This document shows, piece by piece, positions 4,431 to 28,752 of a stretch of DNA of 45,667 nucleotides. This DNA is from a virus. A model generated the notes under the pieces. It did not search any database, was not told the origin of the DNA, and was given only the letters and a program-made list of their open reading frames with translations. The first letter of the stretch is position 1, and every line of letters begins with the position of its first letter. Location: the IMG/VR virus record IMGVR_UViG_3300007540_000022, positions 1 to 45,667 of that record. One strand, written 5' to 3'. Made by a program: the position numbers and the translations under genes.

Positions 4431-4795
4431 AGCAATTACTAACGTTATTACTATTAGGAATATCTAGTATTTGCTATTCACAAGATACTCTTCAAATTCC
4501 TTCATCGGAACTTGAGGAGTTTTTCTTAGCCCTAGATACTTTACAAACTCAAGATTCTATTAAAACTATTTATATTTCTAATTTAGAAACTGAATTGGTT
4601 TTACTTAAAAATTTAACCACACAAGATAGTTTATTATTATCTTATAAAAATCAAGAAGTTCAACTATTAAATGAACAAATTGAATTGTATGATAAACATT
4701 TAAATCAAGTAGATAAATGGTACAATAAACCCTGGATAGGGGTAGTAGGCACTATACTTTTTTTAAATGCTGTAGATTATACACTTCCTAAATGA
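4427..4795 (+). CDS. Exported coiled-coil protein with C-terminal membrane segment
   Basis: A 122-residue protein. Residues 1-19 are a signal peptide (KQLLTLLLLGISSICYSQ), ending in the Ser-Gln junction common in Bacteroidota secreted proteins. Residues about 25-95 are Leu/Glu/Gln/Asp-rich and predicted coiled-coil. Residues about 101-118 (PWIGVVGTILFLNAVDYTL) are hydrophobic and may be a C-terminal membrane segment. Exported coiled coil plus C-terminal anchor resembles unimolecular spanins, but the Cys at the signal end lacks a convincing lipobox, so I do not call it one. It overlaps both neighbours by 4 bases. Function unknown. Confidence 0.6.
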   Translation: MKQLLTLLLLGISSICYSQDTLQIPSSELEEFFLALDTLQTQDSIKTIYISNLETELVLLKNLTTQDSLLLSYKNQEVQLLNEQIELYDKHLNQVDKWYNKPWIGVVGTILFLNAVDYTLPK

Positions 4796-6363
4796 GTAAC
4801 CTTAAAAAAATAATAAGGCAAGAATATGTAAAGTGCGCCCAGGATCCTATACACTTCATGAAGAAGTATTGTATGATTCAACACCCACAAAGGGGTAGAA
4901 TACAGTTCCATTTATACCCTTTTCAAGAAAAAGTCTTAAAACTATTTGAAGACAATCCTTATTCTATTATTTTAAAATCGCGTCAATTAGGCATTTCAAC
5001 ACTATCTGCGGGGTACTCGCTATGGATGATGATTTTCCATGAAGATAAAAATATTTTATGCATAGCTACCAAGCAAGAAACCGCTAAAAACATGGTTACA
5101 AAGGTTAAATTTATGTATGAAAATTTACCTTCTTGGCTTAAAGTAGATTTTGAAGAAAACAACAAACTAACCCTTCGACTAACAAACGGGTCTCAAATTA
5201 AAGCCACATCAGCATCTAGTGATGCAGGTAGATCCGAAGCAGTTTCCCTTTTGCTAATTGATGAGGCTGCCTTCATTGATAATATTGGAGAAATATGGGC
5301 CTCGGCTCAACAAACACTCGCTACTGGTGGAGGGTGTATTGCTCTTTCAACACCTTATGGTACTGGAAATTGGTTCCACCAAACATGGGTTAGAGCAGAA
5401 TCCTCAGAAAATGAATTCTTACCTATTAAATTACCTTGGTATGTCCACCCTGAACGAGACCAAGTGTGGAGAGATAGACAAGATGAACTACTAGGAGATC
5501 CTAGAATGGCAGCACAAGAATGTGACTGCGACTTTAGCACCTCAGGTGACATTGTATTTTACCCTGAATATCTAGAATTTATAGAAAAATCTACACTTAA
5601 AGAACCTTTAGAAAGAAGAGGTGCAGACCAAAATTTATGGATTTGGGAATCAGCCGATTATTCAAGACAATACCTTATCTCAGCAGACGTAGCTAGAGGA
5701 GATGGTAAGGATTACTCAGCTTTTCACATTTTTGATGTAGAATCGGCTACTCAAGTAGGTGAATATAAAGGCCAAGTAGGTACTAAAGACTTTGGTAATA
5801 TTCTTACAGCAATTGCTACCGAATATAACAATGCCCTACTCATAGTGGAAAATGCTAACATTGGATGGAGTACAATTCAAACTATTATTGAACGTAATTA
5901 TTCTAATTTATACTACTCACCTAAATCCGATAATATAAATGTAGATTCTTATTTACAAAATTATGAAAATAATTCAAGTATGACTGCAGGTTTTACTATG
6001 TCAACAAGAACTCGCCCTATGGTAATAGGTAAATTTCAAGAATATGTAGCAGATAGAGGTGTTACAATCCAATCAAAACGCTTACTAGAAGAAATGAAAA
6101 CGTTTATATGGAAACATGGCAGGGCTGAAGCTCAAGGAGGCTATAATGACGATTTAATTATGAGTTTTGGTATGGGATTATACGTTAGAGACACAGCATT
6201 AAAATTTAAACAACACGGAGTAGATATAACAAAGGCAGCTTTAGGATCCTTTTCAAAAACCACAACCAACTACCAAGGAGCTTACTTCTCTACAGGACTA
6301 GATAATCCTTATACTATGGATGATGGAAAAGGGGGAACTGAGGATTTTAGTTGGCTTTTGTAA
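4792..6363 (+). CDS. terL: Terminase large subunit (T4 gp17-like)
   Basis: A 523-residue DNA-packaging motor ATPase/nuclease. The ATPase domain has a Walker A-like segment SRQLGIST (63-70), in which the classical Lys before Ser/Thr is Ile. It also has Walker B LLLIDEAA (153-160) and coupling motif ALSTP (184-188). The C-terminal RNase-H-like nuclease shows the acidic residues D299 (ISADVARG), E353 (LIVENAN) and D453/D454 (YNDDL), matching the gp17 Asp-Glu-Asp centre. It acts at the portal vertex to cut and pump DNA. It is somewhat shorter than T4 gp17 (610). No small terminase subunit is apparent nearby. It overlaps the upstream gene by ATGA, so packaging is co-expressed with the accessory operon. 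Confidence 0.95.
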   Translation: MSNLKKIIRQEYVKCAQDPIHFMKKYCMIQHPQRGRIQFHLYPFQEKVLKLFEDNPYSIILKSRQLGISTLSAGYSLWMMIFHEDKNILCIATKQETAKNMVTKVKFMYENLPSWLKVDFEENNKLTLRLTNGSQIKATSASSDAGRSEAVSLLLIDEAAFIDNIGEIWASAQQTLATGGGCIALSTPYGTGNWFHQTWVRAESSENEFLPIKLPWYVHPERDQVWRDRQDELLGDPRMAAQECDCDFSTSGDIVFYPEYLEFIEKSTLKEPLERRGADQNLWIWESADYSRQYLISADVARGDGKDYSAFHIFDVESATQVGEYKGQVGTKDFGNILTAIATEYNNALLIVENANIGWSTIQTIIERNYSNLYYSPKSDNINVDSYLQNYENNSSMTAGFTMSTRTRPMVIGKFQEYVADRGVTIQSKRLLEEMKTFIWKHGRAEAQGGYNDDLIMSFGMGLYVRDTALKFKQHGVDITKAALGSFSKTTTNYQGAYFSTGLDNPYTMDDGKGGTEDFSWLL

Positions 6364-6388: not shown

Positions 6389-8290
6389 ATGGCCGATACA
6401 AGCATATTTACAAGATTAAAGAGATTATTCTCTACGGATGTAATAATCCGCAATACCGGAGGAAATCAACTTAAAGTTTTAGACTTTGATGAATTTCAAC
6501 AAGCAGGTCAATTAGAAACTAATTCCATGGTTGATAGGTACAATCGTTTGTATACTACTAACTCAATAGGAATTTACAACCCTGGAATAAATTACCAAAC
6601 CCTTAGACCACAACTTTATAGGGATTACGAAGCTATGGATACTGATGCTATAGTAGCATCAGCCCTTGATATAATAGCTGATGAATCCACTCTTAAAAAT
6701 TCAATGGGTGAGGTGATCCAAATAAAAAGTTCTGATGAGCATTTACAAAAAATTCTATATAATTTATTTTATGATGTATTAAATATAGAATTTAATTTAT
6801 GGATGTGGGTTCGCCAAATGTGTAAGTATGGTGACTTTTTTCTTAAATTGGAAATAGCAGATAAATTTGGTGTATATAATGTTATACCTTATACTGCTTA
6901 TAATATCATAAGAGAAGAAAAAATTGGAGAAAATAAACATGATGTAGAAGTCAAATTTAAATTTGATCCTGATGGGTTAAGTGGGGGTGGTGAATACGGG
7001 GGTTACTATGGAACCTCAACCTCAACTTCAGACTATAACAATCGGAATGCTATTTACTTTGACAATTATGAAATTGCCCACTTTAGACTACTCTCAGATG
7101 TAAACTACCTCCCATATGGTAGAAGCTACATAGAACCCGCACGTAAACTCTTTAAACAGTATGTTTTAATGGAGGATGCTATGTTAGTACATAGAATTGT
7201 AAGAGCACCTGAAAAACGTATTTTTTATATAAATGTAGGAGCTATACCACCTGCTGAAATAGAAAACTTCATGCAGAAGACTATTTCAAAAATGAAACGC
7301 ACTCCCTATATGGATCAAGAAACTGGGGACTATAATCTCAAATATAACATGCAAAACATGTTAGAGGATTTTTATATTCCTATGAGAGGTAATGACACCA
7401 CTACTAAAATTGATACCACCCCAGGCTTACAATATGATGGAATTCAAGACGTTGAATACTTAAGAGATAAATTATTTGCAGCTCTTAAAGTACCAAAGGC
7501 ATTTTTAGGATATGATGAAAACACAGGAGGTAAAGCAACTTTAGCATCAGAAGATATTAGATTTGCACGCACTGTAGAACGTATCCAAAAGATCGTTCTC
7601 TCAGAATTATATAAAATTGCAGTTGTTCACCTCTACACCCAAGGTTATGATGGGGAAGAATTAACAAATTTCGAACTTAATTTAACTATACCTTCTATCA
7701 TTTATGAACAGGAGAGAGTTGTATTAATGAAAGAAAAAATGGACTTAGCAGCTCAAATGATGGAGACTAAGCTATTCCCTACAGACTTTATTTATGATCA
7801 CCTGTTTGATATGAGTGAAGATGAGTATGTAGAATTTAGAGATTTGGTTAGAGAGGATGCTAAACGTGCCTTCCGTAACGCGCAAATCGAAACCGAAGGA
7901 AACGATCCTCAAGAAACCGGAGCTTCATATGGTACTCCACATGATTTAGCTACTATGTATGGTAAAGGTAGATATTATGATGAACCTGATAATGTACCTA
8001 CTGATTATAATCAAAGTGATCTAGGCAGACCCAAAGAAAATTCATCAAATCGTAATACTCAAGATAACGCCTTTGGTAAAGATAGATTAGGTGTAAAGGC
8101 TATGAAAGGTGTTGAAAATGAGTCTGATTCTAGAAAATCTACATATAAAGGAAATTCTCCTTTAGCTTTAGAAGCCAAAACAACATATCTGCAGAATAAA
8201 GATATGCTTAAAAAAATACCTGTTAATCGCAAACAATTAGTATTTGAGCAAGATGAGTCATTATTAGATGAAGGTAACTTAAAGGAGTGA
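6389..8290 (+). CDS. Portal vertex protein (T4 gp20-like)
   Basis: A 633-residue portal protein forming the dodecameric ring through which DNA enters and to which the neck attaches. Recognisable portal segments are 'YNPGINYQTLRPQLYRDYEAMDTDAIVASALDI' (residues about 57-90, quoted only in part in the gene), 'EIAHFRLLSDVNYLPYGRS' and 'EPARKLFKQYVLMEDAMLV'. 'YRIVRAPEKR'-type and 'VPKAFLGYD' segments also match. The last 130 residues are polar, Glu/Asn-rich and probably disordered. Position immediately after terL and before the core/protease/capsid genes is canonical for T4-like phages. The ATG at 6389 is preceded by the intergenic motif rather than by a ribosome-binding purine tract. Confidence 0.93.
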   Translation: MADTSIFTRLKRLFSTDVIIRNTGGNQLKVLDFDEFQQAGQLETNSMVDRYNRLYTTNSIGIYNPGINYQTLRPQLYRDYEAMDTDAIVASALDIIADESTLKNSMGEVIQIKSSDEHLQKILYNLFYDVLNIEFNLWMWVRQMCKYGDFFLKLEIADKFGVYNVIPYTAYNIIREEKIGENKHDVEVKFKFDPDGLSGGGEYGGYYGTSTSTSDYNNRNAIYFDNYEIAHFRLLSDVNYLPYGRSYIEPARKLFKQYVLMEDAMLVHRIVRAPEKRIFYINVGAIPPAEIENFMQKTISKMKRTPYMDQETGDYNLKYNMQNMLEDFYIPMRGNDTTTKIDTTPGLQYDGIQDVEYLRDKLFAALKVPKAFLGYDENTGGKATLASEDIRFARTVERIQKIVLSELYKIAVVHLYTQGYDGEELTNFELNLTIPSIIYEQERVVLMKEKMDLAAQMMETKLFPTDFIYDHLFDMSEDEYVEFRDLVREDAKRAFRNAQIETEGNDPQETGASYGTPHDLATMYGKGRYYDEPDNVPTDYNQSDLGRPKENSSNRNTQDNAFGKDRLGVKAMKGVENESDSRKSTYKGNSPLALEAKTTYLQNKDMLKKIPVNRKQLVFEQDESLLDEGNLKE

Positions 8291-12479: not shown

Positions 12480-14117
12480 ATGTCAAATTTAAATTCTCTT
12501 TTAGAGAGCGCAAATCAGTGGAAAAACGTCCAATCGGACTCCGCTAGATTAGCTAACAAATGGAATCAGACAGGATTGTTAGAAGGACTCAATAGTGAGA
12601 CTGACAAAAACAATATGGCTTTGATTCTCGAAAACCAAGCTAAACAGCTTGTTGTTGAATCTTCACAAACTGGTGGTGGTGTAGCAGGTGCTTCATTTAC
12701 TCCTGGAACAGGTGAACAATGGGCAGGAGTTGCTCTTCCTTTGGTAAGAAAAGTATTCGGTATGATTGCTGCGAAAGATTTCGTAAGTGTTCAACCTATG
12801 AGCTTACCTTCAGGACTTGTTTTCTTCCTCGATTTTCAATATGGAACAGCTAAGTCTGGTTCTAAATTCAATGTAGGTGGTGATGTATTTGGTGCAGGCT
12901 CTATGTATGGTGTTACTAACACTGAGGGTGCCCCTACTGATGGTTTATACGGTGCAGGTAAGTGGACTTACTCTACCAATGTAACTTCATCAGGCCCAAT
13001 TGCAACCGCTGCGAGTATCAGCTCAGCCTCATGGGCCGAAGTTGGATTCGACTCAGCGTTATCTGCTTCTATTGCAGGAACTGCTAGTACCTTAAAGAGA
13101 CTAGTATTCAACTCATCATCATTCGCCTTCCCAGACCTTGATGGTGTTAGAGGATTCGTTGTAGACGGTACTAGTGTTGGAGTTAATATTCCTCAATACA
13201 ATTATGCCTCAGGAAGTGCTAATGATATTGTTTTATACGTTCAAGGTACCGCGGGTGCCACTGACCCAACTGCCTTTACTATCACTTATGTACAGGCACC
13301 ACAGGATAACCGAAGAGGTGATTTCGAAGATGGTAACACCACTTTGAACGGAAATAACAGCCCGATCGATATCCCAGAAATCAACATTAAGATGAAGTCT
13401 GAAGCAATCGTTGCTAAGACTAAGAAACTTAAGGCTGTATGGACTCCAGAATTTGCTCAAGATTTGAACGCTTACCATTCTTTGGATGCTGAAGCTGAAT
13501 TGACAAGCATCATGAGTGAGTACATTGCTCTTGAAATTGATTTGGAGATCCTAGGTATGTTAATTGAAAATGCTCTTACTACTGACTACTGGTCAGCTAG
13601 GAACAATGAAACATTTGATGCTAGTGGTGAAACCAACAATGGTACTTTCTATAATACTCAAGGTCAATGGTTCCAAACTCTCGGTACTAAGTTAAACAAG
13701 GTATCTAACAAGATTCACCAATTAACTTTGAGAGGAGGTGCTAACTTTATGGTATGTTCTCCAACAATCGGTACTATCTTGGAATCAATCCCAGGATTTG
13801 CTGCTACAGATGGAGCGGATGCTGATACTATGAACTACGCGTTTGGTATCCAAAAAGTAGGTAACTTAAACACCAAGTTTGATGTTTATAAGAACCCATA
13901 TATGACTGAAAACACTATCCTATTAGGATTTAGAGGTTCTCAGTTCTTGGAAACAGGTGCTACTTTTGCTCCTTATATTCCATTGATCATGACTCCTCTT
14001 GTATACGATCCACAGACCTTCACTCCACGTAAAGGCCTCTTGACTCGCTATGCTAAGAAGATGTTAAGACCTGAATACTATGCTAAGATCTATGTGAACG
14101 GTTTGAATACCCTCTAA
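12480..14117 (+). CDS. Major capsid protein (T4 gp23-like)
   Basis: A 545-residue major head protein with the HK97-type fold. The N-terminal 60 residues are a helical propeptide expected to be removed by the prohead protease. Candidate (I/L/V)-x-E sites are ILE at 49-51 and VVE at 58-60, just before the Gly-rich SSQTGGG segment. 'WAGVALPLVRKVFGMIAAKDFVSVQPM' and 'FFLDFQYG' (about 80-120) are hallmark gp23 segments. 'DLEILGMLIENA', 'FMVCSPTIGTILESIPGF' and the C-terminal 'RYAKKMLRPEYYAKIYV' also match. It lies 24 bases after the scaffold gene without its own motif, so it is probably co-transcribed from 11248 onward. A strong terminator follows. Confidence 0.95.
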   Translation: MSNLNSLLESANQWKNVQSDSARLANKWNQTGLLEGLNSETDKNNMALILENQAKQLVVESSQTGGGVAGASFTPGTGEQWAGVALPLVRKVFGMIAAKDFVSVQPMSLPSGLVFFLDFQYGTAKSGSKFNVGGDVFGAGSMYGVTNTEGAPTDGLYGAGKWTYSTNVTSSGPIATAASISSASWAEVGFDSALSASIAGTASTLKRLVFNSSSFAFPDLDGVRGFVVDGTSVGVNIPQYNYASGSANDIVLYVQGTAGATDPTAFTITYVQAPQDNRRGDFEDGNTTLNGNNSPIDIPEINIKMKSEAIVAKTKKLKAVWTPEFAQDLNAYHSLDAEAELTSIMSEYIALEIDLEILGMLIENALTTDYWSARNNETFDASGETNNGTFYNTQGQWFQTLGTKLNKVSNKIHQLTLRGGANFMVCSPTIGTILESIPGFAATDGADADTMNYAFGIQKVGNLNTKFDVYKNPYMTENTILLGFRGSQFLETGATFAPYIPLIMTPLVYDPQTFTPRKGLLTRYAKKMLRPEYYAKIYVNGLNTL

Positions 14118-14141
14118 TTAGACTTTAGAATATACTAAGAG

Positions 14142-14168
14142 AAAGCCCCGCTTATGCGGGGCTTTTTT
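14142..14168 (+). terminator. Strong rho-independent terminator after the capsid gene
   Basis: A perfect 10-base stem AAAGCCCCGC / GCGGGGCTTT with a TTAT loop, followed by TTTTTT. Flanking A-rich sequence on the other side would let it work in both directions. Confidence 0.93.
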
Positions 14169-14179
14169 ATTCTCTAGTA

Positions 14180-14196
14180 GTATACTATATGTATAC
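14180..14196 (+). promoter_or_regulatory. Twin GTATAC palindromes before the enzyme cassette
   Basis: Two copies of the palindromic hexamer GTATAC at 14180-14185 and 14191-14196, spaced 11 bases apart (one helical turn), lie 13 bases before the ATG at 14209. The usual intergenic motif is absent here. It may be an operator or a different promoter class; this is inference. Confidence 0.35.
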
Positions 14197-14208: not shown

Positions 14209-15135
14209 ATGTTATATAAAATGAAAGAGACCCCCTCACAACTGCCTATACCGGCATTCGTTATGAATTTTCCCTTCACATTATCTACTGCAAACCCCAA
14301 TAATATTTGGATGCAAGAAATGGAAGAAGAAGCACTTAAAATAAATAAAGGAACTGCTTATCGTCAATTTTTAGATTTATATCAATTTGTAGCAGGCAAT
14401 AGCTTAGCTTATGTACTACCCGCTGATGGAGATTTCCAAGATTTGGTATATGTAGCAAATTTAGGTATTTATTTACCTCATATTAAAGATTCAAATAATA
14501 TTATTATGGCAAACTTTACTTCTGAACCTCGACAAGGGGAAGAAGAAGTTGGAAAACCATTTTTTGAATCCATGGGTTATAAAGTTCATATGTGTCCCTT
14601 TAAATGGGAAGGTGAAGCAGATTTAAAATATCTCTATGACAATGTTTATGTAGGGGGTTACGGAATGCGCTCAGATATCCAAGCCTATGAATGGATGGAA
14701 AAAGAATTTGGTATGAAAATCATTAAACTAGAAATGGTTGATGAATATCTATACCACTTAGATTGTTCTATTTTCCCGTTAACTAAAGAAAAAACATTGG
14801 TTTGCACGGAACTATATGATGATGTTGAATTAGCTGAATTATCACAATATACTGACGTAATAAACATAGAAGGTGACGACGCCCTTAACGGAATGGCAAA
14901 TTCAGTACGTTTGGGCAACACAATTTTATGTGCTTCAAATATTTCTGAAATGACTAGAGCAGATGAAAATTATGAAGCAGAAAAACATAAAATTGAAAGC
15001 TTAGAAAAAATCTGCTTTAACGAAGGACTCGAACCAGTATTTTTCAATATCTCAGAATACATGAAGTCAGGAGCTATGTTAAGCTGTATGATAATGCATT
15101 TGAATTATGTAGATTACGATAAATCCCTCCTATAA
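14209..15135 (+). CDS. Pentein-fold amidinotransferase/DDAH-like enzyme
   Basis: A 308-residue protein of the guanidino-modifying pentein superfamily (arginine deiminase, dimethylargininase, amidinotransferase). Diagnostic features in order are 'LAYVLPADGDFQDLVYVANLG', 'ANFTSEPRQGEE', 'WEGEADLKYL' then 'YVGGYGMRSD', 'YHLDCSIFPL' with the catalytic His183, 'MANSVRLGNTIL', and 'ISEYMKSGAMLSCMIMHL' with the nucleophile Cys293 about 15 residues from the end. All catalytic elements appear present, so it should be active on a guanidino compound, substrate unknown. An ATG at 14221 is an alternative start. The stop shares its last base with the next ATG, coupling it to the decarboxylase. Such an enzyme between capsid and fibre genes is unusual. 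Confidence 0.75.
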   Translation: MLYKMKETPSQLPIPAFVMNFPFTLSTANPNNIWMQEMEEEALKINKGTAYRQFLDLYQFVAGNSLAYVLPADGDFQDLVYVANLGIYLPHIKDSNNIIMANFTSEPRQGEEEVGKPFFESMGYKVHMCPFKWEGEADLKYLYDNVYVGGYGMRSDIQAYEWMEKEFGMKIIKLEMVDEYLYHLDCSIFPLTKEKTLVCTELYDDVELAELSQYTDVINIEGDDALNGMANSVRLGNTILCASNISEMTRADENYEAEKHKIESLEKICFNEGLEPVFFNISEYMKSGAMLSCMIMHLNYVDYDKSLL

Positions 15136-15884
15136 TGGCTCAATATTTAGAAGACTGGTTAGAGGGGGAGGTTGCAGAATTATCAAAATTGGAAGTAGGT
15201 GAATTATCAAATACTTTCTTTTTTAGAGACCCAATGCGCCCTAACTATGTAGACCACAGACACTTTTACTCCCCAGCCGACGGAACAATTTTATATCAAA
15301 AGGTAGTTCAAAACGCTACTGACCCTATAGTAGAAATTAAGGGTATGAATTATACAATTCAAGATGTACTTGGGGATAAAACTTACGATAAACCTTCTCT
15401 TGTAATTGGCATATTTATGTCATTTTATGATGTTCATATAAATAGAATACCCTACCCTGGTATATTACAATATAAAGGTTTAGATCCTATAGAATCTACT
15501 AACAAACCTATGTTAGCTATAGAAAAAGATATTTTAAATGCTGCTATTAACCCTAATAATTTAGAATATCTTAAGTATAATGAAAGAATGTGGAATAAAA
15601 TTTACTCTCCACAATTAGATTATACTTATTACTTAGTCCAAATAGCAGACGAGGACGTAAATGTTATAGCTCCCTTCATTAATGACCAGAATTCACCTGT
15701 ATCACAAAATGAACGTTTTTCACTTATAAGATGGGGCTCACAAGTTGACCTAGTTTTACCACTGGATGATAGATTTAACTTTGACCTTGTTTTAGAGAAT
15801 GAAATGCATGTAAACGCCGGATTAGATAAACTAGTTAAAATTAACTTTAATAATGACCCATTTCAATACGACCGAAGAAGCTAA
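15135..15884 (+). CDS. Phosphatidylserine decarboxylase-like pyruvoyl enzyme
   Basis: A 249-residue member of the PSD family, which self-cleaves to form a pyruvoyl cofactor and decarboxylates phosphatidylserine or, in related members, other amino-acid substrates. 'FFFRDPMRP' (28-36) and 'YSPADG' (45-50) match the N-terminal family motif, with Asp49 as the triad acid. 'GIFMSFYDVHINRIPYPG' (92-109) holds the triad His101. 'RFSLIRWGSQVDLVLP' (194-209) carries the Gly201-Ser202 self-cleavage site, here GSQ rather than the common GST. No membrane helix is seen, so any lipid action would be peripheral. It is coupled to both neighbours, starting on the upstream stop and overlapping PhoH by 32 bases. 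Confidence 0.8.
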   Translation: MAQYLEDWLEGEVAELSKLEVGELSNTFFFRDPMRPNYVDHRHFYSPADGTILYQKVVQNATDPIVEIKGMNYTIQDVLGDKTYDKPSLVIGIFMSFYDVHINRIPYPGILQYKGLDPIESTNKPMLAIEKDILNAAINPNNLEYLKYNERMWNKIYSPQLDYTYYLVQIADEDVNVIAPFINDQNSPVSQNERFSLIRWGSQVDLVLPLDDRFNFDLVLENEMHVNAGLDKLVKINFNNDPFQYDRRS

Positions 15885-16551
15885 AGAAATTTTTAGAGAA
15901 AAAAAAGTAGCAAAAAACCCTATAAAGTTTAAAATACAATTAAACGATGAACAGAAAGAAGCAAAACAACTAATACTAGACAACACAATTACACTATTAG
16001 CGGGTCAAGCAGGATCAGGTAAAACCCTATTAGCTTGTCAAGTAGCTTTAGATGGTTTACTTAGAAGAATCTACACCAAAATCATTATTACTCGTCCTAC
16101 AGTAAGTAAAGAAGAAATCGGTTTCCTCCCAGGTGATTTAAGAGAAAAAATGGACCCCTGGGTGCAACCTATTTATCAAAATTTATTTATGTTATATGAT
16201 AAGGCTAAAATCGAAAAACTTATAGCAGATGGTAAAATAGAAATTGTACCTGTTTCATTTATGAGAGGTAGAACATTTTTAGATGCATGTGTTATTGTAG
16301 ATGAAGCTCAAAATGTAACCCACGATCAAATGGAAATGATTACAACACGTCTGGGTTTAAGGTCCAAAATGATGGTATGTGGTGATGCTCACCAAACAGA
16401 TTTAAAGAAAAAATCAGACTCTGGATTTAAATATCTTTACAAAGCATCACGAAAAATTAAAAATCTTGAAGCTATTACACTCCAATCTAACCACCGCAAT
16501 GAAATTGTAGAAGATTTACGTGATTATTATGAAGATAACCCCATTTTCTAA
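15853..16551 (+). CDS. phoH: PhoH-like ATPase
   Basis: A 232-residue PhoH-family P-loop ATPase. Walker A is GQAGSGKT (51-58). 'ITRPTVSKEEIGFLPGDLREKMDPW' follows (starting near residue 79, part of the family signature). 'VPVSFMRGRTF' precedes Walker B VIVDEAQN (147-154), and 'MMVCGDAHQTDL' follows. The RNA-helicase-like core is complete and near full length for phage PhoH. The gene is common in marine phages but its role there is unsettled; phosphate stress or RNA metabolism have been proposed. It overlaps the decarboxylase gene by 32 bases in another frame, the tightest coupling in the cassette. Confidence 0.93.
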   Translation: MTHFNTTEEAKEIFREKKVAKNPIKFKIQLNDEQKEAKQLILDNTITLLAGQAGSGKTLLACQVALDGLLRRIYTKIIITRPTVSKEEIGFLPGDLREKMDPWVQPIYQNLFMLYDKAKIEKLIADGKIEIVPVSFMRGRTFLDACVIVDEAQNVTHDQMEMITTRLGLRSKMMVCGDAHQTDLKKKSDSGFKYLYKASRKIKNLEAITLQSNHRNEIVEDLRDYYEDNPIF

Positions 16552-16575: not shown

Positions 16576-18972
16576 ATGGCAAAAATTGAATGGGCTAATA
16601 GAGCAGACTCTGGATCTAACAGTGAGGTTAGTGCATCTATATTTAACGAAACCAAAACCTCAGTTAACACCTTATATGATATAATAGAGGCCCAAACTGG
16701 AAACACAGGCTCTTCCCCAACAGGAAGCCAATTTATCTCAGGCACTATTTATATCTCAAGTAGTATAATACCCAATACCGCACCGGGTGAAACCGTTTCT
16801 TCTTTTAGTTTAGGGGGACCTAACTCGGCATGGAGCGAAATTTATGTATCCGATGGATCTATAAATTTTGTATCGGGGTCAAATATATCTTCTTTTACTA
16901 AAGCGGAGTTAGACTCAATAAAAGAAGGTAAATCCGCTTCTACAGGATCAAAAGGGGGAATTAATTCGGGTTCATGGATTACAACTCAAGCAATATTTTC
17001 TGAAGGGGTTGATACTAGCTACTTCAGACTAGGCCCAGATAGAATTTATACATCTATAGGATCAAACCTTTTATTAGACCTTACAGGCTCTCAAGTTTTA
17101 ATAGGTTTAAGTGGTTCTTCTAGTACTAACACACTTTATGGAAATCTTCATATTCCTTCTGGGAGTATCGAAGTAACAGGATCTATTATAGTTAAATCTA
17201 ATTCCCCAGGCATTTTATCTTTAGGAGACCTTGTGCTGGGAGCAGGAGAAACAGGATCAGGGGGAGGTATCTTTCCCTTAAGTCCCTTTGCAGATGAAAC
17301 CTTTTTGGGTGCCCTTGCTTCAGGAAACGATCAAATATGGATGTACAATAACGGAACATCTTCTTTTTCTTCTTTTGCTAACTTAGGTTACCAAAGTAAA
17401 ATCTCAGGATCTAACTCTCTAACTACAGGATTCCAAACAATAGCAGGATACTACTCTCATGCTGAAGGACATCACACAACAACTAATCCTTCTACGGATG
17501 TAGTCTTAGGCCCTACAGTATATGGATTTGGTGCTTATGCCCACGCTGAAGGATCATATAGCACAGCTTCTGCATTTTATTCACATGCTGAAGGTCTAAA
17601 TACTCTAACCACAGGCTCATCAGGAGGAGGACAGCATTCCGAAGGTAAAGAAACTATAGCAAGTGGTGAAGCTTCCCATGCTGAAGGTTACTTAACTATA
17701 GCATATGGGGCTACATCTCATACCGAAGGATTTGGAACTATAGCACTAGGAGTTTCCTCTCATGCTGAAGGATTTTATACCATAGCATCGGGGTCAGCTC
17801 AACACGTTCAAGGTAAATATAATACCCATGATAATACTACTTCCTTAATGATTATAGGAAACGGTGTTAGCGATGGAGCTAGAAGTGACTTAGCTTTATT
17901 TAATTCTAATGGCATTGAATTTAAAAACGACCTTACAGCATCTCTCATCTCAGCTAGTGGTGCTTTATATGCCGCTATCCCTGAAGATACTAATAGTAGT
18001 GGTACTAATGTTGTAGTATATGATCCTACAACAGGTCAATTCGAATATACAGGTTCATATTCTTCTGGGGGGAGTGGAGGGGAAGATACTGATTGGTATA
18101 TAACCGCTGATAATTTAAATGTTACTTCTTCCCGAACTGTAGTTATCACAGGAAGTTTAGCTCAAGGCCAATTTAACATTGTTGGAGGTTTATACTCCCA
18201 TGCACAAGGATATGATACTATAACACAAGCAGGATATTCACATGCTGAAGGAAATGGAACCGTAGCGGGGGCTGAAGGATCTCATGCTGAAGGACGCACT
18301 ACAAAAACTAATGGAGTTTACTCCCACACTGAGGGCCGTGAAACCCAAACTTTAGGGAACTACTCTCACGCTGAAGGTTACCTAACTACAGCATCAGGTC
18401 AATTCTCTCATACTGAAGGCGAAGCCACACTTGCCTCAGGGAGGGGATCTCATGCTGGAGGTTATAACACCCATGCAACAGGATCATTTACCCATGCTGA
18501 AGGGTACGATACATTTGCCTTTGGAAGGGGAGCCCATACCGAAGGATCTTTCACATCCGCCTCAGGTGATTTTTCCCATGCTGAAGGTACCCTTACACTA
18601 GCTATAGGAGAATCATCACATGCTCAAGGATTCACAACTCTAGCAAATGGTTCTTACTCATTTGCAGCAGGTTCTGGATCAAGAGCCCAAGGTACCGGTT
18701 CATTTTCTACAGGTGATAATACAATTGCCCAAAGGGATTACTCAACTGCGGTAGGTAAATTTACAAAATTCGGTGATGCTGATGGGATAGGAAAAATCGA
18801 TGAAGCTTTATTTATTGTAAGTAATGGTACTAACGATGGAAGTAGAAAAAATATTGTAGTAATCAATACGGCTTCAATATTCTTAGATGCTCAAAGCTTA
18901 CCCACATCAGACCCCGAATTTATAGGCCAAGTATGGAGAGATGGAGTTAACTTAAAAATTTCATTAGGATAA
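16576..18972 (+). CDS. Tail-fibre/adhesin with YadA-head SHAEG repeats
   Basis: A 798-residue protein. The N-terminal segment 'AKIEWANRADSGSN' and following helical residues probably attach it to the virion. Two blocks of left-handed-roll repeats follow (S-H-A-E-G-x-x-T-x-A-x-G type), with about 8 units at residues 290-420 and about 12 at 540-720. These are like the trimeric head domains of YadA/Hia autotransporters. Each block ends in a related stalk, 'IIGNGVSDGARSDLALFN' and 'IVSNGTNDGSRKNIVVIN', so the protein arose by internal duplication. It should form a trimeric, ligand-binding fibre. It is preceded by the intergenic motif and starts the adhesin island. Confidence 0.85.
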   Translation: MAKIEWANRADSGSNSEVSASIFNETKTSVNTLYDIIEAQTGNTGSSPTGSQFISGTIYISSSIIPNTAPGETVSSFSLGGPNSAWSEIYVSDGSINFVSGSNISSFTKAELDSIKEGKSASTGSKGGINSGSWITTQAIFSEGVDTSYFRLGPDRIYTSIGSNLLLDLTGSQVLIGLSGSSSTNTLYGNLHIPSGSIEVTGSIIVKSNSPGILSLGDLVLGAGETGSGGGIFPLSPFADETFLGALASGNDQIWMYNNGTSSFSSFANLGYQSKISGSNSLTTGFQTIAGYYSHAEGHHTTTNPSTDVVLGPTVYGFGAYAHAEGSYSTASAFYSHAEGLNTLTTGSSGGGQHSEGKETIASGEASHAEGYLTIAYGATSHTEGFGTIALGVSSHAEGFYTIASGSAQHVQGKYNTHDNTTSLMIIGNGVSDGARSDLALFNSNGIEFKNDLTASLISASGALYAAIPEDTNSSGTNVVVYDPTTGQFEYTGSYSSGGSGGEDTDWYITADNLNVTSSRTVVITGSLAQGQFNIVGGLYSHAQGYDTITQAGYSHAEGNGTVAGAEGSHAEGRTTKTNGVYSHTEGRETQTLGNYSHAEGYLTTASGQFSHTEGEATLASGRGSHAGGYNTHATGSFTHAEGYDTFAFGRGAHTEGSFTSASGDFSHAEGTLTLAIGESSHAQGFTTLANGSYSFAAGSGSRAQGTGSFSTGDNTIAQRDYSTAVGKFTKFGDADGIGKIDEALFIVSNGTNDGSRKNIVVINTASIFLDAQSLPTSDPEFIGQVWRDGVNLKISLG

Positions 18973-19870: not shown

Positions 19871-21733
19871 ATGGCATTACCTGATTTAACAGGGCAAAAT
19901 ATAGAAAATACTTATCAAAGGGTATTACAAACTGATGGCACTGTTATATATGATGGTACTGGGTCAGTTTTTCTCCCTATAAGTGCTTCTTACGCGGTAA
20001 CTGCTTCTTATGCTGAATATGCTGTATCTGCTTCCCATGAGATTATAAAAGAAGTATCCTCTTCTTATGCCGATTACGCCAAAGAATCAGGATTATCCAC
20101 CTCCTCCATATCTGCCTCTTATGCTTTAACAGCTTCTTATGCTTTAAACTCCCCTGATACATTCCCATACACAGGGAGTGCTATAATTAGTGGTAGTTTA
20201 GTAGTTACTGGATCTACAGAAATACAATACTTAACAGCCTCAGGACTTAACTACCCTGCTATTGATGGGGGTGAAAAACAATTTATTACTACTGATGGTA
20301 GTGGTAATCTAAGTTTTGATTGGTCTGATAGAACTAACATAGATGTAAAAAATACATATGGGATAACCTTACCTATAGGAACACCTGTATACATAAGTGG
20401 CTTCCAGGGAGCTTCTATATTTCAAATTGCCCCTGCTTCTGCTTCAGAAGCTAACACCATGCCCTCTATTGGTATTTTAGACCAAACATTAAATGCCAAC
20501 GATCAGGGTTATGCTACTTTATTAGGTGCCGTAAGAGGGGTTGATACTAATGGGTATTCAATTAATCAAAGTTTATATGTAGGTGAAGGAATCTTAACTC
20601 CTAACAGACCAACAGGTTCTGCTTTAATCCAAAAAATCGCTAGAGTAGGAAGAGTTGCCAATAATGGAGAAATAACAGTATTAGGAGCGGGGAGAAGTAA
20701 TGATATACCTAACCTCCAACCAGGTTATGCTTGGGTAGGAGATAGTACCTGGAATGCGGTTGCAACACCTACATCATCATTTAATGAAGATCCATTCCCA
20801 TATACAGGAAGTGCTATAATTAGTGGTAGTTTAGAGGTAATAGGAGATACTAACATTACAGGTTCACTTATCACATCAGGTTCTATTGTAGATTTTTCTT
20901 TAGCATCTTCTATTAATCTAGGTTTAGAACCTGCATTTAAGTCCGCAGGACTTTTTTTTATAAATACTTCAGTAAACTATAACGTAACTACCCCTATAAA
21001 TGTTCAGTTTGACCAAATTGAATACAACCAAGGAAGTTCTTTAACCCCTTCAACAGGGAGTAATACATCAGTAATTACTATTTCTGAAGCAGGATATTAC
21101 CAAGTAGATGCTGCAGTTGCCTTTAATACAGGTGGGGCAAGAACTACTCCTGGAATGAATATCTTTATTAATGGGGTTGAAGTACAAGGTAGAGCTTATG
21201 GTTATATAAGAAATGCTAGTGGGGCTGATGAGGCTAGTTGTACTCTTTCTAGAATTATTTATTGTCCTGGCGGTAATGAACAAATAGAAATTAAAGTAGC
21301 TAACTATGCAGCAAGCGGTACTTGCAACGCCCAACAAGGATATTTTCAATTAACTAAAGTAGATAATCCCGCTTTACAAGGTCCTGCTGGACCAGCAGGC
21401 CCCGCAGGGCAAGCTGGTACTTCTTTTTCAGTTTCTTTAGAAAGTACAGGAAGAACACTTGCTTTAAGTGATAATTTAACCTATATAAAATGTTCTCCTT
21501 CCTCCCCAGGAGCTACTTACACAGTCCCTCCCCAATCAGATGTTTCATGGCCTGATTCATGTGAAGTAGCTTTTGAACAGGGTAATGCCTTTCCTATTAC
21601 TATAGCAGCAGGGAGCGGAGTTACAATTAATTCCTCAGCAACTCTTGTAACGTCAGGTCAATATGCTGTTATAGCTTTAAAAAGAGTCAGTACTAATACA
21701 TGGACTTTAACAGGTGAACGAGCAACTACTTGA
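19871..21733 (+). CDS. Tail-fibre protein with C1q-like domain and collagen linker
   Basis: A 620-residue fibre protein. Residues about 35-95 carry ASYA repeats (SASYAVTASYAEYA, SASYALTASYALN), predicted to form a trimeric helical or beta stalk. The segment YTGSAIISGSL occurs twice (about 98 and 311), marking a duplicated module. Residues about 355-495 are a C1q-like jelly roll ('VITISEAGYYQVDAAVAF'). A short collagen linker GPAGPAGPAGQAG follows at about 500. The C-terminal 100 residues are a beta domain ('ALSDNLTYIKC', 'SGVTINSSATLVTSGQYAVIALK') common at phage fibre ends. A receptor-binding fibre is the natural reading. Its stop region overlaps the next start. Confidence 0.8.
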   Translation: MALPDLTGQNIENTYQRVLQTDGTVIYDGTGSVFLPISASYAVTASYAEYAVSASHEIIKEVSSSYADYAKESGLSTSSISASYALTASYALNSPDTFPYTGSAIISGSLVVTGSTEIQYLTASGLNYPAIDGGEKQFITTDGSGNLSFDWSDRTNIDVKNTYGITLPIGTPVYISGFQGASIFQIAPASASEANTMPSIGILDQTLNANDQGYATLLGAVRGVDTNGYSINQSLYVGEGILTPNRPTGSALIQKIARVGRVANNGEITVLGAGRSNDIPNLQPGYAWVGDSTWNAVATPTSSFNEDPFPYTGSAIISGSLEVIGDTNITGSLITSGSIVDFSLASSINLGLEPAFKSAGLFFINTSVNYNVTTPINVQFDQIEYNQGSSLTPSTGSNTSVITISEAGYYQVDAAVAFNTGGARTTPGMNIFINGVEVQGRAYGYIRNASGADEASCTLSRIIYCPGGNEQIEIKVANYAASGTCNAQQGYFQLTKVDNPALQGPAGPAGPAGQAGTSFSVSLESTGRTLALSDNLTYIKCSPSSPGATYTVPPQSDVSWPDSCEVAFEQGNAFPITIAAGSGVTINSSATLVTSGQYAVIALKRVSTNTWTLTGERATT

Positions 21734-23751
21734 TAATGGCTTTTCTTTTTGAATTATCTGCTGCCGCTTATCCAAGAACATCAACAAATGTTTTACCTTT
21801 TAATTTTACTATAGATACTAGAAATACTGAAGTTGGAAGTACCACAATATTTCAATATAGACTTCCCACAATATCTACAGGAACTTATGATTTTAGTGTT
21901 TCTTGGGGTGATGGTACCTCTGATAATATCACTTCTTGGAATCAATCTGAAGTTGTTCACACGTATAATTCTGTTGGGATATATGATATCATTATTTCTG
22001 AAAATATTTCTAATGGGGTTGACCATATTTCATGGGCAGCCCAAGATGGCAGTACAGCAACTGCTGCTAATGATAGGCTTAAATTAATAAATGTAAAATC
22101 TTGGGGTCCTGTAAAAATATATCTTTCTGATAAAATTTTTCAAAATTGTGAAAACTGGTATATGACTGCTACGGATGTTCCTAATTTTGGATCTAAAGAT
22201 ATTCCTCGAGGTGGTAATTATCAAACCTTTATAAATAATAATTCTCTTGTAGGTGATTTTACTTCTTGGGGTACTTCTGGGAGCCCTATAACAGGAGACT
22301 TTAGACAATTTGCACAAGGATCTGACAACCCAAATATTAATTTTCATGCTACCATAGGACTTTCAAGTACTTCACCCCCATACGCAATGGAGGGAGTATT
22401 TCAAGATACCCAATTTACAGGATCTATATCTAATTGGGACATTAGTAATGTAACTTCATTTAACTCACTATTTGCCGGAAATACTGTTTATAATAATCCC
22501 GAGATTGTAAATTTTAATACAAGTTTAATAACTAGAATGAATGCGATGTTCAACGGAGCTACTTCATTTAACCAGGATATTTCAGGTTGGGATGTAAGTA
22601 GTGTAACGGATATGAGGTCCATGTTCCTAAATGCCTCCTCATTCAATCAAGATATTAGTAGTTGGGATGTGGGTTCTTTAACAGCTATGAGTTACATGTT
22701 TGCAGGAATATCATTCAATCCTGATGTTTCTTTATGGGATGTGAGTAATGTTACAGATTTCCTAAGATTTATTCAAGAAAATCCTATATTCAATGCTGAT
22801 ATATCAAATTGGGATGTCAGTAGCGCGTCAACCTATGAATTTATGTTTAATTTCGCCCCCGTATTTAACCAACCCATAGGTAATTGGACTTTAAGTTCTA
22901 CTGCTACTTCTATGCGTAGAATGTTCCAAGGAGCTACATCATTTAACCAAAGCCTTTCAGGGTGGGATGTGAGTAACATTACTAATTTTACTGAAGTTTT
23001 TACAGGTGCCACTGCTTTTAATGGAAATGTTACAACTTGGGATGTTTCTAGCGGAACTACATTTTTTGAAATGTTTGAAAATTGTTCTAGCTTTAACCAA
23101 AATATTGATAATTGGAATATTTCTGGGGGTTCTCTTTATGGAATGTTTAATGGTTGTACTAATTTTGATCAACCCCTCACAAGTTGGTCAAGTTCTATTA
23201 GTAATGTTTCTACTATAGATACTATATTTTTTAATGCAACATCTTTTAATCAGGATATATCAAGTTGGGATGTAAGTAATTTAACAAGTATGCAACGGGT
23301 ATTTTATAATGCCGATGCTTTTGATCAAGATATTAGCAGTTGGGATGTATCTAATGTTACTAATTTTACTAGTATGTTTTATGATTGTCGTGATTTTGAT
23401 CAAGATATATCTAATTGGAACACAAGTGCCGCTACTACATTTCAAGATATGTTTTTTAGAGCAGGATTTGGTGCCCCTACAGGAACTGGATTTAACCAAG
23501 ATTTAGGAAGTTGGGATATAAGTGGTGTAACTAATATGTCTAGAATGTTTAGAAATGTACCTAACCTTTCAGACGAAAACTATAGTAATATTCTTATAGG
23601 ATGGGCTGCCCAAGCTCCTAATATACAATCTAATGTAACCCTTGAGGCTAATTTAACCCAATACTCAGGATCCATTGCAAGTTCTGCACGAAACACTCTT
23701 ACCGGTACTTACGGGTGGACTATTTTAGATGCGGGTGATAATGGTCAATAA
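21730..23751 (+). CDS. BspA/DUF285-repeat adhesin with PKD-like domain
   Basis: A 673-residue protein that looks like a Bacteroidota surface protein rather than a classic phage fibre. Residues about 40-95 form a PKD-type domain ('VSWGDGTSDNITSW', 'VHTYNSVGIYDI'). From about residue 220 to 620 there are around 14 DUF285/26-residue surface-protein repeats of the form F-N-Q-D-I-S-x-W-D-V-S-x-V-T-x-M-x-x-M-F. The C-terminus ('NILIGWAAQAP', 'LTGTYGWTILDAG') matches the usual end of such proteins. No signal peptide is seen, consistent with a virion protein. It starts 4 bases inside the preceding gene. Host-derived adhesion specificity is inferred. Confidence 0.8.
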   Translation: MIMAFLFELSAAAYPRTSTNVLPFNFTIDTRNTEVGSTTIFQYRLPTISTGTYDFSVSWGDGTSDNITSWNQSEVVHTYNSVGIYDIIISENISNGVDHISWAAQDGSTATAANDRLKLINVKSWGPVKIYLSDKIFQNCENWYMTATDVPNFGSKDIPRGGNYQTFINNNSLVGDFTSWGTSGSPITGDFRQFAQGSDNPNINFHATIGLSSTSPPYAMEGVFQDTQFTGSISNWDISNVTSFNSLFAGNTVYNNPEIVNFNTSLITRMNAMFNGATSFNQDISGWDVSSVTDMRSMFLNASSFNQDISSWDVGSLTAMSYMFAGISFNPDVSLWDVSNVTDFLRFIQENPIFNADISNWDVSSASTYEFMFNFAPVFNQPIGNWTLSSTATSMRRMFQGATSFNQSLSGWDVSNITNFTEVFTGATAFNGNVTTWDVSSGTTFFEMFENCSSFNQNIDNWNISGGSLYGMFNGCTNFDQPLTSWSSSISNVSTIDTIFFNATSFNQDISSWDVSNLTSMQRVFYNADAFDQDISSWDVSNVTNFTSMFYDCRDFDQDISNWNTSAATTFQDMFFRAGFGAPTGTGFNQDLGSWDISGVTNMSRMFRNVPNLSDENYSNILIGWAAQAPNIQSNVTLEANLTQYSGSIASSARNTLTGTYGWTILDAGDNGQ

Positions 23752-27036: not shown

Positions 27037-28752
27037 ATGGCAGAACAAATAGTATCACCTGGAGTATTCACAAGAGAAAACGACCAGTCATTTATCACAC
27101 AACAACCTGTAGAAGTAGGAGCTGCAATTGTAGGCCCTACTGTTTTAGGCCCTGTTGAAATCCCAACTATAGTTACTTCTTATAGTGAATACCAAAATAG
27201 ATTTGGCTCAACTTTTGTAAGTGGTGGGCAAGTTTATTCCCATTTAACAGCGGTATCAGCATATAATTACTTCCAAAACGGAGGTAATACTTTGTTGGTA
27301 ACTAGAGTTGTAACAGGTTCATTTACGTCTGCTGAATCCAGGATTGACGGAGACTCATCTACATCTCTTATACTTAAAACTATTTCTGAAGGTACTATTA
27401 TGAATAGTGGTGGGGGAGTTGAAGGAAATGATGGGGATTTACCAAATGGAACTGATAGCAATGTAAGATGGGAAGTATCTTTTTCAGACACAGGATCTGG
27501 AACTTTTAATCTTTTAATTAGACAGGGTAACGATTTAACCAACGACAAATCTGTATTAGAAACTTATGCCGGAGTATCATTAGATCCTTTCCAAGATAAT
27601 TATGTAGCTAAAGTAATAGGTGACAGTTCTCAACAACTCCTATCTGATAGTGATGGAAATAAGTATTTACAAGTAACTGGATCTTATCCTAATAAAAGTA
27701 ATTATGTTTATGTAAGTGAAGTATTGCAACCTACCCCTAATTTCTTTAATAACACAGGGTCCGCTGCAAGTGTTGCTTATGAAGAATCTATCCCTGTAGT
27801 TGCAAGTGGATCTTTCTTACAAGGCTTAGGTGAATTAACAGGCAGTGAACAAGCTTTATTTAATGAAAAAATTGATACTAATACTCAAGGCTTAAGAGCT
27901 GAGGATTATAGCGACGCATTTAGTTTGTTAACTAACAACGACGAATACCAATACAACGTAATCACCGCTCCTGGATTGTTCCACGGTATAGCAGCACATA
28001 CTGGCGTATTAAACACATTAATAGCTAATACTCAAAATAGAGGAGATGCGATCGCTGTAGTTGATCTTACAAAATATGGATCTACTATTACTTCTACCAC
28101 AAACCAAACTTCAGGCATTAACTCTAGCTATGCAGCTTCATACTGGCCTTGGTGTCAGATTATTAATCCTAATACAGGAAAAACTAATTGGGTTCCAGCA
28201 TCAACATTAATCCCAGGTGTATATGCCTTTAATGACAATGCTTCTGAACCGTGGTTTGCACCTGCAGGTATTAATAGAGGAGGTTTATCTCAAGTAATCC
28301 GTCCTGAAAGAAAATTACAAAGATCACAAAGAGATACTTTGTACGAGAGCAATGTAAACCCAATTGCTAATTTCCCTGCAACCGGAACAGTAGTATTTGG
28401 ACAAAAGACATTACAAAAGAAAGCATCTGCACTTGATCGTGTAAATGTTAGAAGGTTATTAATTGCCCTTAAGAGCTATATTGGTCAAGTTGCTAACGAC
28501 TTAGTATTTGAACAAAATACTGCAGCTACTAGAAATAACTTCTTAGCCCAAGTAAATCCATACATGGAAAGTGTGCAACAAAGACAAGGTGTATATGCCT
28601 TTAAGGTAGTAATGGATGCGTCTAATAACACTCCTGATGTAATCGATAGAAATCAAATGGTAGGCCAGATATTCTTACAGCCAACCAGAACAGCAGAATT
28701 TATAATCCTCGATTTCAACGTATTGCCAACAGGAGCTGAATTCCCCGCATAA
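27037..28752 (+). CDS. Tail sheath protein (T4 gp18-like)
   Basis: A 571-residue contractile sheath subunit. The N-terminus 'IVSPGVFTRENDQSFI' and 'GAAIVGPTVLGPVEIPTIVTS' are hallmarks of the sheath family. A variable domain (about 90-300) follows. Then come the conserved C-terminal features 'DAIAVVDL', 'SSYAASYWPWCQIINPNTG', 'APAGINRGGL' and 'NPIANFPATGTVVFGQKTLQ', with 'RVNVRRLLIALKSYIGQVANDLVFEQN' (part) forming the inner core. It polymerises around the tail tube and contracts at infection. It is followed 40 bases later by the tube gene, as in T4. Confidence 0.95.
   Translation: MAEQIVSPGVFTRENDQSFITQQPVEVGAAIVGPTVLGPVEIPTIVTSYSEYQNRFGSTFVSGGQVYSHLTAVSAYNYFQNGGNTLLVTRVVTGSFTSAESRIDGDSSTSLILKTISEGTIMNSGGGVEGNDGDLPNGTDSNVRWEVSFSDTGSGTFNLLIRQGNDLTNDKSVLETYAGVSLDPFQDNYVAKVIGDSSQQLLSDSDGNKYLQVTGSYPNKSNYVYVSEVLQPTPNFFNNTGSAASVAYEESIPVVASGSFLQGLGELTGSEQALFNEKIDTNTQGLRAEDYSDAFSLLTNNDEYQYNVITAPGLFHGIAAHTGVLNTLIANTQNRGDAIAVVDLTKYGSTITSTTNQTSGINSSYAASYWPWCQIINPNTGKTNWVPASTLIPGVYAFNDNASEPWFAPAGINRGGLSQVIRPERKLQRSQRDTLYESNVNPIANFPATGTVVFGQKTLQKKASALDRVNVRRLLIALKSYIGQVANDLVFEQNTAATRNNFLAQVNPYMESVQQRQGVYAFKVVMDASNNTPDVIDRNQMVGQIFLQPTRTAEFIILDFNVLPTGAEFPA

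What the first reader, a model, noticed from the sequence alone, without database searches (positions are those of the whole stretch)
14209..16551. Coupled pentein enzyme - PS decarboxylase-like - PhoH cassette inside the structural region
Three genes are fused by translational coupling. A shared stop/start base joins the first pair and a 32-base overlap joins the second. They are isolated from the capsid operon by a strong terminator. Two encode apparently intact small-molecule or lipid enzymes. Coupling suggests they act together, for instance remodelling host membrane or amine metabolism during infection. I know of no described phage system with this combination.
Basis: partly seen in the sequence, partly recalled or inferred. 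Interest (0 to 1): 0.8.

Follow-up and report, generated by a model that had tools for sequence, protein, structure and literature searches.

The report
Portable two-enzyme arginine module in phages
A pair of enzyme genes, one resembling an arginine-breaking enzyme and one a soluble relative of a lipid-making enzyme, travels together through distantly related phages and through bacteria, where an export pump often sits next to it, which points to a shared small-molecule pathway rather than membrane remodelling.

Summary
The three genes and the terminator are real and where stated. The three-gene reading is not: PhoH is a resident neighbour. Of 62 capsid-gene relatives with enough flank, 37 have PhoH without the pair (33 within 371 nt of the capsid gene), 17 have pentein, PSD-like and PhoH, 8 have none, and none has one of the pair alone. 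The pentein/PSD-like pair is the unit. It recurs in Bacteroides phages (adjacent), Campylobacter phages (both present, unlinked), a contig with reversed order, and bacteria of four phyla: the pentein lies beside the PSD-like gene in 21 of 21 close-subfamily loci and 0 of 10 ordinary PSD loci. A MATE exporter is next in 15 of 21. The PSD-like family lacks the N-terminal membrane helix of ordinary PSDs (16 of 16 against 0 of 10). The pentein is closest to arginine dihydrolases, with seven mapped residues invariant. Best reading: a soluble arginine-to-amine pathway, most likely arginine to ornithine to putrescine; the product is inferred. Membrane remodelling is not supported.

The parts
12480..14117 (+). 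Major capsid protein gene (T4-like), resident upstream neighbour, not part of the module
   Evidence: PHROG 138 major head protein 2e-65; in 37 of 62 relatives with at least 2200 nt downstream PhoH is found without the pair
14142..14169 (+). Rho-independent terminator of the capsid gene (hairpin 14142-14165 plus T run)
   Evidence: Fold of 14120-14185: -27.8 kcal/mol, z -5.8; position checked; a hairpin at the same place in the 14 pair-bearing and 18 pair-less relatives printed
14185..14195 (+). CTATATGTATA, at the place where several close relatives have CTATATTTATA; possibly the promoter that served PhoH before the insertion
   Evidence: Intergenic sequences; position; TATTTATA lies within 60 nt upstream of 9 of 38 + gene starts. 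Promoter role inferred
14209..15135 (+). Pentein (guanidino-group-modifying enzyme), arginine-dihydrolase-like, 308 aa
   Evidence: PHROG 12759 1.6e-61; NCBIfam arginine dihydrolase 1.9e-23; model pLDDT 92, best PDB match ArgZ 6jv0 E 6.3e-21; D78 N84 R108 E134 R154 H183 C293 invariant in 17 of 17
15135..15884 (+). Soluble PSD-like pyruvoyl decarboxylase, 249 aa
   Evidence: PF02666 1.9e-24; PHROG 12670 1e-43; D49, H101 and G201-S202-Q203 invariant in 16 of 16; no N-terminal hydrophobic segment; fold matches E. coli PSD and, weakly, PsiD
15853..16551 (+). PhoH-like ATPase, resident neighbour, not part of the module
   Evidence: PF02562 3.8e-62; present without the pair in 37 of 62 relatives; not found beside the pair in bacteria, DAC19 or L129
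16552..16559 (+). TATTTATA element before the next gene at 16576 (YadA-like fibre)
   Evidence: function inferred

Best explanation
The pentein and the PSD-like gene are a portable two-gene metabolic module lying between the capsid terminator and a resident phoH gene. It encodes a soluble two-step pathway that starts from L-arginine. The pentein most likely works as an arginine dihydrolase (arginine to ornithine, ammonia and CO2). The PSD-like protein, after self-cleavage at S202 to make a pyruvoyl group, most likely decarboxylates the free basic amino acid to an amine: putrescine if the substrate is ornithine. In bacteria the same unit is often joined by a MATE exporter, so there the amine is probably secreted; in phages it would be made during infection, for example as counter-ion for packaged DNA or to change host amine pools. 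Shown: adjacency, co-occurrence, conserved catalytic residues, lack of a membrane helix, exporter association, and relatives without the insert. Inferred: both reactions, the product and the use.
For: Unit: all 45 phage records that match the PSD-like protein are among the 47 that match the pentein (accession lists; two of the 45, PV052264 and PV052266, have the weakest and, in PV052264, fragmentary matches). Of 112 distinct viral pentein/PSD pairs, 109 are pentein first with a gap of 200 nt or less; 7 further contigs show one gene only and are cut by a contig end there. Bacteria: pentein beside the PSD-like gene in 21 of 21 close-subfamily loci and in 0 of 10 ordinary PSD loci. In 189 genomes of one order, 9 carry each gene, the same 9, side by side; 180 carry neither at E 1e-30. 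The main clades of the two gene trees agree apart from NCTC12673, and gene order is swapped between lineages. Pair-less site: 37 of 62. Soluble: hydropathy before PADG at most 0.31 in 16 of 16, against at least 2.03 in 10 of 10 ordinary PSDs. Exporter: one BLASTP cluster next to the pair in 15 of 21 loci, and the 7 members scanned are all MatE; an ABC exporter follows in L136. Arginine: AgrE D65, N71, R90, E118, R139, H168, C264 align with invariant D78, N84, R108, E134, R154, H183, C293. Fold E 6e-21 to ArgZ against 1e-12 or weaker for DDAH, amidinotransferases and deiminases. Acidic residues special to the PSD-like family (D174 15/16 against 0/10, D231 15/16 against 0/10) could hold a basic side chain. 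Precedent: phage pyruvoyl ornithine and arginine decarboxylases derived from SpeD (PMC9992855 abstract; PMC10407285 passages).
Against: No activity data. Scores are far below the NCBIfam equivalog cut-offs (pentein 83 against 450; PSD-like 71 against 183), so substrates may differ. I know of no PSD-fold ornithine decarboxylase (recall). Fold rank alone does not separate a dihydrolase from an amidinotransferase. In NCTC12673 the two genes are about 43 kb apart. No SpeD family member in 13 virus records, 11 of them pair-bearing, two of those complete isolates, so no further polyamine step is seen. Seven of 20 bacterial genomes with the unit carry an agmatine-deiminase family gene and so may have another putrescine route. 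At D172, 3 of 10 ordinary PSDs also have Asp, and at D99 2 of 10. No MATE was found beside the pair in L147 and L148.
Confidence: 0.4

Rival explanations
1. Amidinotransferase route: the PSD-like enzyme decarboxylates an amino acid to an amine, and the pentein moves an amidino group from arginine to it, giving a guanidino compound (for example agmatine from putrescine, or guanidinoethanol) that bacteria export.
For: Pentein fold also matches SxtG, HsvA polyamine amidinotransferase and AGAT; residues aligned with the arginine enzyme's kept; exporter neighbour; some GenBank annotators called it amidinotransferase.
Against: ArgZ/AgrE match is about nine orders of magnitude better by E-value; no PDB amidinotransferase reaches E 0.01 by profile; the Asn mutated in the ArgZ N71S structure is kept.
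Confidence: 0.3
2. Lipid route: a phage phosphatidylserine decarboxylase raises PE during infection, with an arginine enzyme acting on lipid head groups.
For: PF02666 match above cut-off, catalytic residues kept; psd is discussed as a marine viral gene in PMC11360552 (passages).
Against: No membrane helix in 16 of 16; below the cut-off of every NCBIfam PSD model listed; partnership with a pentein, and often an exporter, in the bacterial loci.
Confidence: 0.1
3. DNA base hypermodification: the decarboxylase and pentein tailor an amino-acid adduct on thymine.
For: In L129 the pair sits beside a Tet/JBP oxygenase (62.9 bits, above cut-off), a PLP-enzyme-like gene (20.1 bits, under the cut-off of 35) and an aGPT-Pplase3-like gene (17.6 bits, under the cut-off of 25).
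Against: The two PHROG families tested (3271, 3650) are in 1 of 15 records, L129's own; the two complete phages with the pair lack both; most of the 15 are fragments. HMUDK and other clades were not searched. Bacterial loci show an exporter instead.
Confidence: 0.05
4. Nitrogen supply: the main benefit is ammonia released from arginine, and the decarboxylation only pulls the reaction or balances pH.
For: ArgZ-like pentein; MATE could export the waste amine.
Against: Does not explain why a pyruvoyl decarboxylase is kept with it.
Confidence: 0.15

Closest known systems
Arginine dihydrolase ArgZ/AgrE N-terminal domain (cyanobacteria)
   Same: Pentein fold, seven mapped active-site residues including the Asn and Cys mutated in solved structures
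   Different: 22-23% identity to the closest structures, no C-terminal domain, partner is a PSD-like decarboxylase; far under the NCBIfam cut-off
Type II phosphatidylserine decarboxylase (PF02666) and PsiD L-tryptophan decarboxylase
   Same: Fold, PADG Asp, His, GS self-cleavage site
   Different: No membrane helix, family-specific insert and acidic residues, partnered with the pentein in the 21 bacterial loci seen
SpeD-derived pyruvoyl ornithine/arginine decarboxylases of phages (PMC9992855)
   Same: Phage-carried pyruvoyl decarboxylase, precedent for the proposed chemistry
   Different: Unrelated protein family; that paper reports no arginase homologue in phages (section 5), and the words phosphatidylserine and dihydrolase do not occur in its held text
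Separately annotated phosphatidylserine decarboxylase and 'aminidotransferase' genes of Campylobacter Fletchervirus
   Same: Same two families, mostly 38-40% identity to the window's
   Different: Unlinked in NCTC12673, and not described as a system in anything I saw

Membership tests
Phosphatidylserine decarboxylase | PF02666 above gathering score | tested here: met
   86.9 bits against 22
Phosphatidylserine decarboxylase | Catalytic Asp, His and Ser of the GS motif (roles recalled) | tested here: met
   D49, H101, S202 invariant in 16 of 16 and in 10 of 10 ordinary PSDs
Phosphatidylserine decarboxylase | N-terminal membrane segment as in the ordinary type II comparators | tested here: not met
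   16 of 16 at most 0.31, against 10 of 10 at least 2.03
Phosphatidylserine decarboxylase | NCBIfam equivalog cut-off | tested here: not met
   Best 71 bits against 183
Phosphatidylserine decarboxylase | Activity on phosphatidylserine | not testable with these tools
   Needs enzyme assay
Arginine dihydrolase (ArgZ/AgrE) | Residues at AgrE D65, N71, R90, E118, R139, H168, C264 (numbering by hand; roles other than N71 and C264 recalled) | tested here: met
   Aligned and invariant in 17 of 17; N71S, C264S and C264A structures named
Arginine dihydrolase (ArgZ/AgrE) | NCBIfam NF052232 cut-off | tested here: not met
   83.1 bits against 450
Arginine dihydrolase (ArgZ/AgrE) | Arginine to ornithine activity | not testable with these tools
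   Needs enzyme assay
Arginine amidinotransferase | Closer in sequence and fold to amidinotransferases than to hydrolases | tested here: not met
   SxtG 9e-12, HsvA 7e-11, AGAT 5e-10 against ArgZ 6e-21
Arginine amidinotransferase | Transfer of amidino group to an acceptor | not testable with these tools
   Needs enzyme assay
Three-gene cassette with PhoH | PhoH travels with the pair | tested here: not met
   37 of 62 capsid relatives have PhoH without the pair; no PhoH match in the bacterial loci, DAC19's or L129's
DNA hypermodification system | phrog_3271 (aGPT-Pplase3-like) and phrog_3650 (PLP-enzyme-like) in pair-bearing genomes | tested here: not met
   1 of 15 records, most of them fragments, two complete

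The most novel reading that the evidence does not exclude
A PSD-fold enzyme family has left the membrane and become an amino-acid decarboxylase that is paired with an arginine pentein, making a small cationic metabolite that bacteria secrete through MATE pumps and that phages of at least two host phyla make during infection: an undescribed pathway shared by phages and bacteria.
Probability: 0.5. Interest if true: 0.8.

Novelty: new variant of a known kind. Interest (0 to 1): 0.62.

Why it matters
It turns two separately annotated phage enzymes ('phosphatidylserine decarboxylase' and 'amidinotransferase') into one testable pathway, questions the lipid reading of this psd subfamily, and offers an isolated phage (Bacteroides DAC19) and named bacterial strains (Saccharothrix coeruleofusca, Streptosporangium violaceochromogenes, Streptomyces sp. 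NK08204) in which the metabolite can be looked for. If the product is a polyamine, it would be a phage route unlike the SpeD-derived ones; if it is a guanidine or other amine, it would be a new shared metabolite.

Tried and rejected
DNA hypermodification: suggested by L129's neighbours, rejected as the general function because the two families tested appear in 1 of 15 records. Polyamine context: no SpeD family member in 13 virus records; spermidine-synthase family in 14 of 20 and agmatine-deiminase family in 7 of 20 bacterial genomes with the unit, L147's genome not being held; neither decides the product. Ten neighbours in the actinobacterial, L152 and L155 loci gave unrelated or mixed families; L147 has adenylation and ketosynthase genes and an ABC transporter piece some kilobases away, not followed up. 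Plasmids: 10 records, all under 60% identity and 26-28% in the rows shown, so ordinary PSDs. A phage search with a bacterial pentein gave the same 47 records by organism count as the window's pentein. The consensus promoter scan found no excess over shuffles, and TATAAATA with up to one mismatch is not clearly in excess in the whole window (174 against 157 expected; 11 of 100 shuffles as high). One-base overlap counts: 76 of 99 pentein-first loci; 7 of the 99 rows are measuring failures (gaps of 914-920 because the hit began upstream of the start codon), and gaps for PSD-first loci are measured from the hit, not the start codon, so are too large. A first count of viral loci (109 with both genes, 8 with one) was replaced after collapsing repeats of one contig. 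NCTC12673 is placed differently in the two trees and is unsure.
Full report
What is there. The window is a T4-like structural region: terminase 4792-6363, gp20-like portal 6389-8290, major head protein 12480-14117, tail sheath 27037-28752. The gene at 14209-15135 is a pentein, 15135-15884 is PSD-like, 15853-16551 is PhoH. The hairpin after the capsid gene is strong.

Coupling is weak evidence by itself. Eight neighbouring gene pairs in this window overlap by exactly one base, so a shared stop/start base is house style. What matters is whether the genes stay together elsewhere.

PhoH is not part of the unit. In 62 of the 80, at least 2200 nt lie downstream of the capsid gene: 17 have pentein, PSD-like and PhoH, 37 have PhoH without the pair, 8 have none of the three, and none has only one of the pair. 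Of the 37, PhoH lies within 77-371 nt of the capsid gene in 33, and 1047-1795 nt away in 4, which must carry something else. The 18 with less sequence: 2 pentein only, 3 both pair genes, 7 PhoH only, 6 nothing. The hairpin is present in the 14 pair-bearing and 18 pair-less relatives that I printed, and a TATTTATA-like element follows in many of them. So the pair was placed between the capsid terminator and phoH, or lost from there. The same interval takes other inserts: an ORF with NUMOD3 in L053 and one with GIY-YIG in L296 between PSD and PhoH (homing-endonuclease signs), and fibre-like ORFs, judged by eye, between capsid and pentein in L025, L029, L118 and L125.

The pair is a unit. Among 50,697 phage records, 45 match the PSD-like protein and 47 the pentein; all 45 are among the 47. 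The two extra are a Campylobacter phage with a fragmentary match and Xanthomonas phiXF1, a DDAH-annotated 21% match. The 45 are 39 Campylobacter and 6 Bacteroides records, many near-copies. In Bacteroides DAC19 the genes are adjacent, among replication genes. In Campylobacter NCTC12673 they are about 43 kb apart. In the viral contigs fetched, 112 distinct pairs: 109 pentein-first with small gap, one PSD-first (L129), one on opposite strands (L392), one with an ORF between (L393); 7 more contigs show one gene at a contig end. These are the best 80 loci per scan, so they lean towards the window's own clade.

Bacteria. One scan of 84,980 species genomes with the phage profile gave 32 loci. One, L135 from a Flavobacteriales MAG, has the phage arrangement at 68% and 77% identity and is probably a phage contig. 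Twenty-one (L136-L156; Verrucomicrobiota, Campylobacterota, Actinomycetota and Pseudomonadota by record title, L142 without a phylum) match over nearly the full length at 44-53% identity, and all 21 have the pentein next to the PSD-like gene, in the order PSD then pentein; in L138, L152 and L155 the contig ends inside the pentein. The other 10 are ordinary PSDs at 25-33% and show no pentein. The scan used two short patterns, so its count is a lower bound. In 189 genomes of the order of L137, both genes occur in the same 9 and lie side by side; 180 have neither at E 1e-30 (eight of the nine were already known).

Third neighbour. A protein cluster next to the pair in 15 of 21 loci is a MATE exporter in all seven members scanned (L137, L140, L142, L146, L151, L153, L156). 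L136 has an ABC exporter as the next gene. In L147 and L148 none was found beside the pair, but my ORF calling in these G+C-rich loci is rough. In Verrucomicrobiota the MATE gene converges on the pair; in L140, L142, L151, L153 and L156 it follows in the same direction. This speaks for a diffusible product.

PSD-like protein. The catalytic D49, H101 and S202 are invariant. All 16 family members tested lack the hydrophobic segment that all 10 ordinary PSDs have before PADG. D174 and D231 are acidic in 15 of 16 and in none of the 10 ordinary ones; D99 (15 of 16 against 2 of 10) and D172 (acidic in 16 of 16 against 3 of 10) separate less well. The model (pLDDT 80, with a weak stretch at 136-145) matches E. 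coli PSD at 1e-5 and PsiD, which decarboxylates free tryptophan, at 1.3e-3.

Pentein. The model (pLDDT 92) matches ArgZ and AgrE best, 6e-21, against 1e-12 for DDAH and 9e-12 or weaker for amidinotransferases, deiminases and AstB. Numbering the AgrE row by hand puts seven residues, D65, N71, R90, E118, R139, H168 and C264, on columns that are invariant in 17 of 17 (C264 comes from the weak second domain of that alignment). N71 and C264 are confirmed by structure titles (N71S, C264S, C264A); the roles of the others are recalled. R90 and R139, which I recall as carboxylate-binding, argue for arginine rather than agmatine as substrate.

History. Trees of 47 rows each (31 phage, 16 bacterial) separate the same main groups: window clade with L129, Bacteroides-type phages, bacteria; NCTC12673 moves and several long branches make its place and others unsure. 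Bacteria and phages fall on two sides of a branch in 99% (pentein) and 91% (PSD-like) of bootstrap trees. So the pair seems to have been inherited together for long, with gene order swapped at least once.

Mechanism and its certainty (my estimates). That the two enzymes act in one pathway, about 0.9. That the substrates are soluble, about 0.85. That arginine is the pentein's substrate, about 0.75. That ornithine and then putrescine are made, about 0.4. The phage use (DNA counter-ion, host amine pools, counter-defence, nitrogen) is open.

Literature. PMC9992855 (abstract and outline, section 5, passages) describes SpeD-derived pyruvoyl decarboxylases in phages and reports no arginase homologue in phages. 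PMC10407285 (passages) extends the decarboxylases to bacteria and archaea. PMC11360552 (passages) discusses psd as a marine viral gene of lipid synthesis. PMC7029224, PMC8226683, PMC3322345, PMC7824862 and PMC11659421 were seen in passages only; a term search in PMC6024767 had no hit. The ArgZ, AgrE and NCTC12673 genome papers were not held. Searches showed me no paper that treats the pair as a system; most hits were seen only as listings.

Noticed in passing
window, upstream of 4116, 8323, 16576, 24103, 28793, 29368, 30402, 32568, 37865: TATTTATA lies within 60 nt upstream of 9 of 38 + strand gene starts, often as TAATATTTATA; perhaps the late promoter of this phage group. The looser motif is not in clear excess over the whole window.
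   Followed up: partly
L129:6966-12620: Tet/JBP-type oxygenase with weaker PLP-enzyme and aGPT-Pplase3-like matches beside the reversed pair: possibly a DNA hypermodification cluster.
   Followed up: partly
L053 and L296 (between PSD and PhoH); L130:10799-12319; L131:6731-8185: NUMOD3, GIY-YIG or annotated homing-endonuclease genes beside the PSD-like gene in several phages; might help move it. The ORF between the genes in L393 gave no Pfam match.
   Followed up: partly
window 21730-23751: 673-aa protein with five DUF285 stretches (3e-111), a repeat named from Mycoplasma, in a phage structural region.
   Followed up: no
window 16576-18972: 798-aa YadA-head-like repeat protein, not matched in many of the relatives that keep the three genes before it.
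   Followed up: no
window 37865-45667: Open reading frame of at least 2601 aa running off the window, with long antisense open frames on the other strand.
   Followed up: no
L147:1-9700: In Saccharothrix the pair lies near adenylation, ketosynthase and ABC transporter genes, possibly a natural-product cluster.
   Followed up: no
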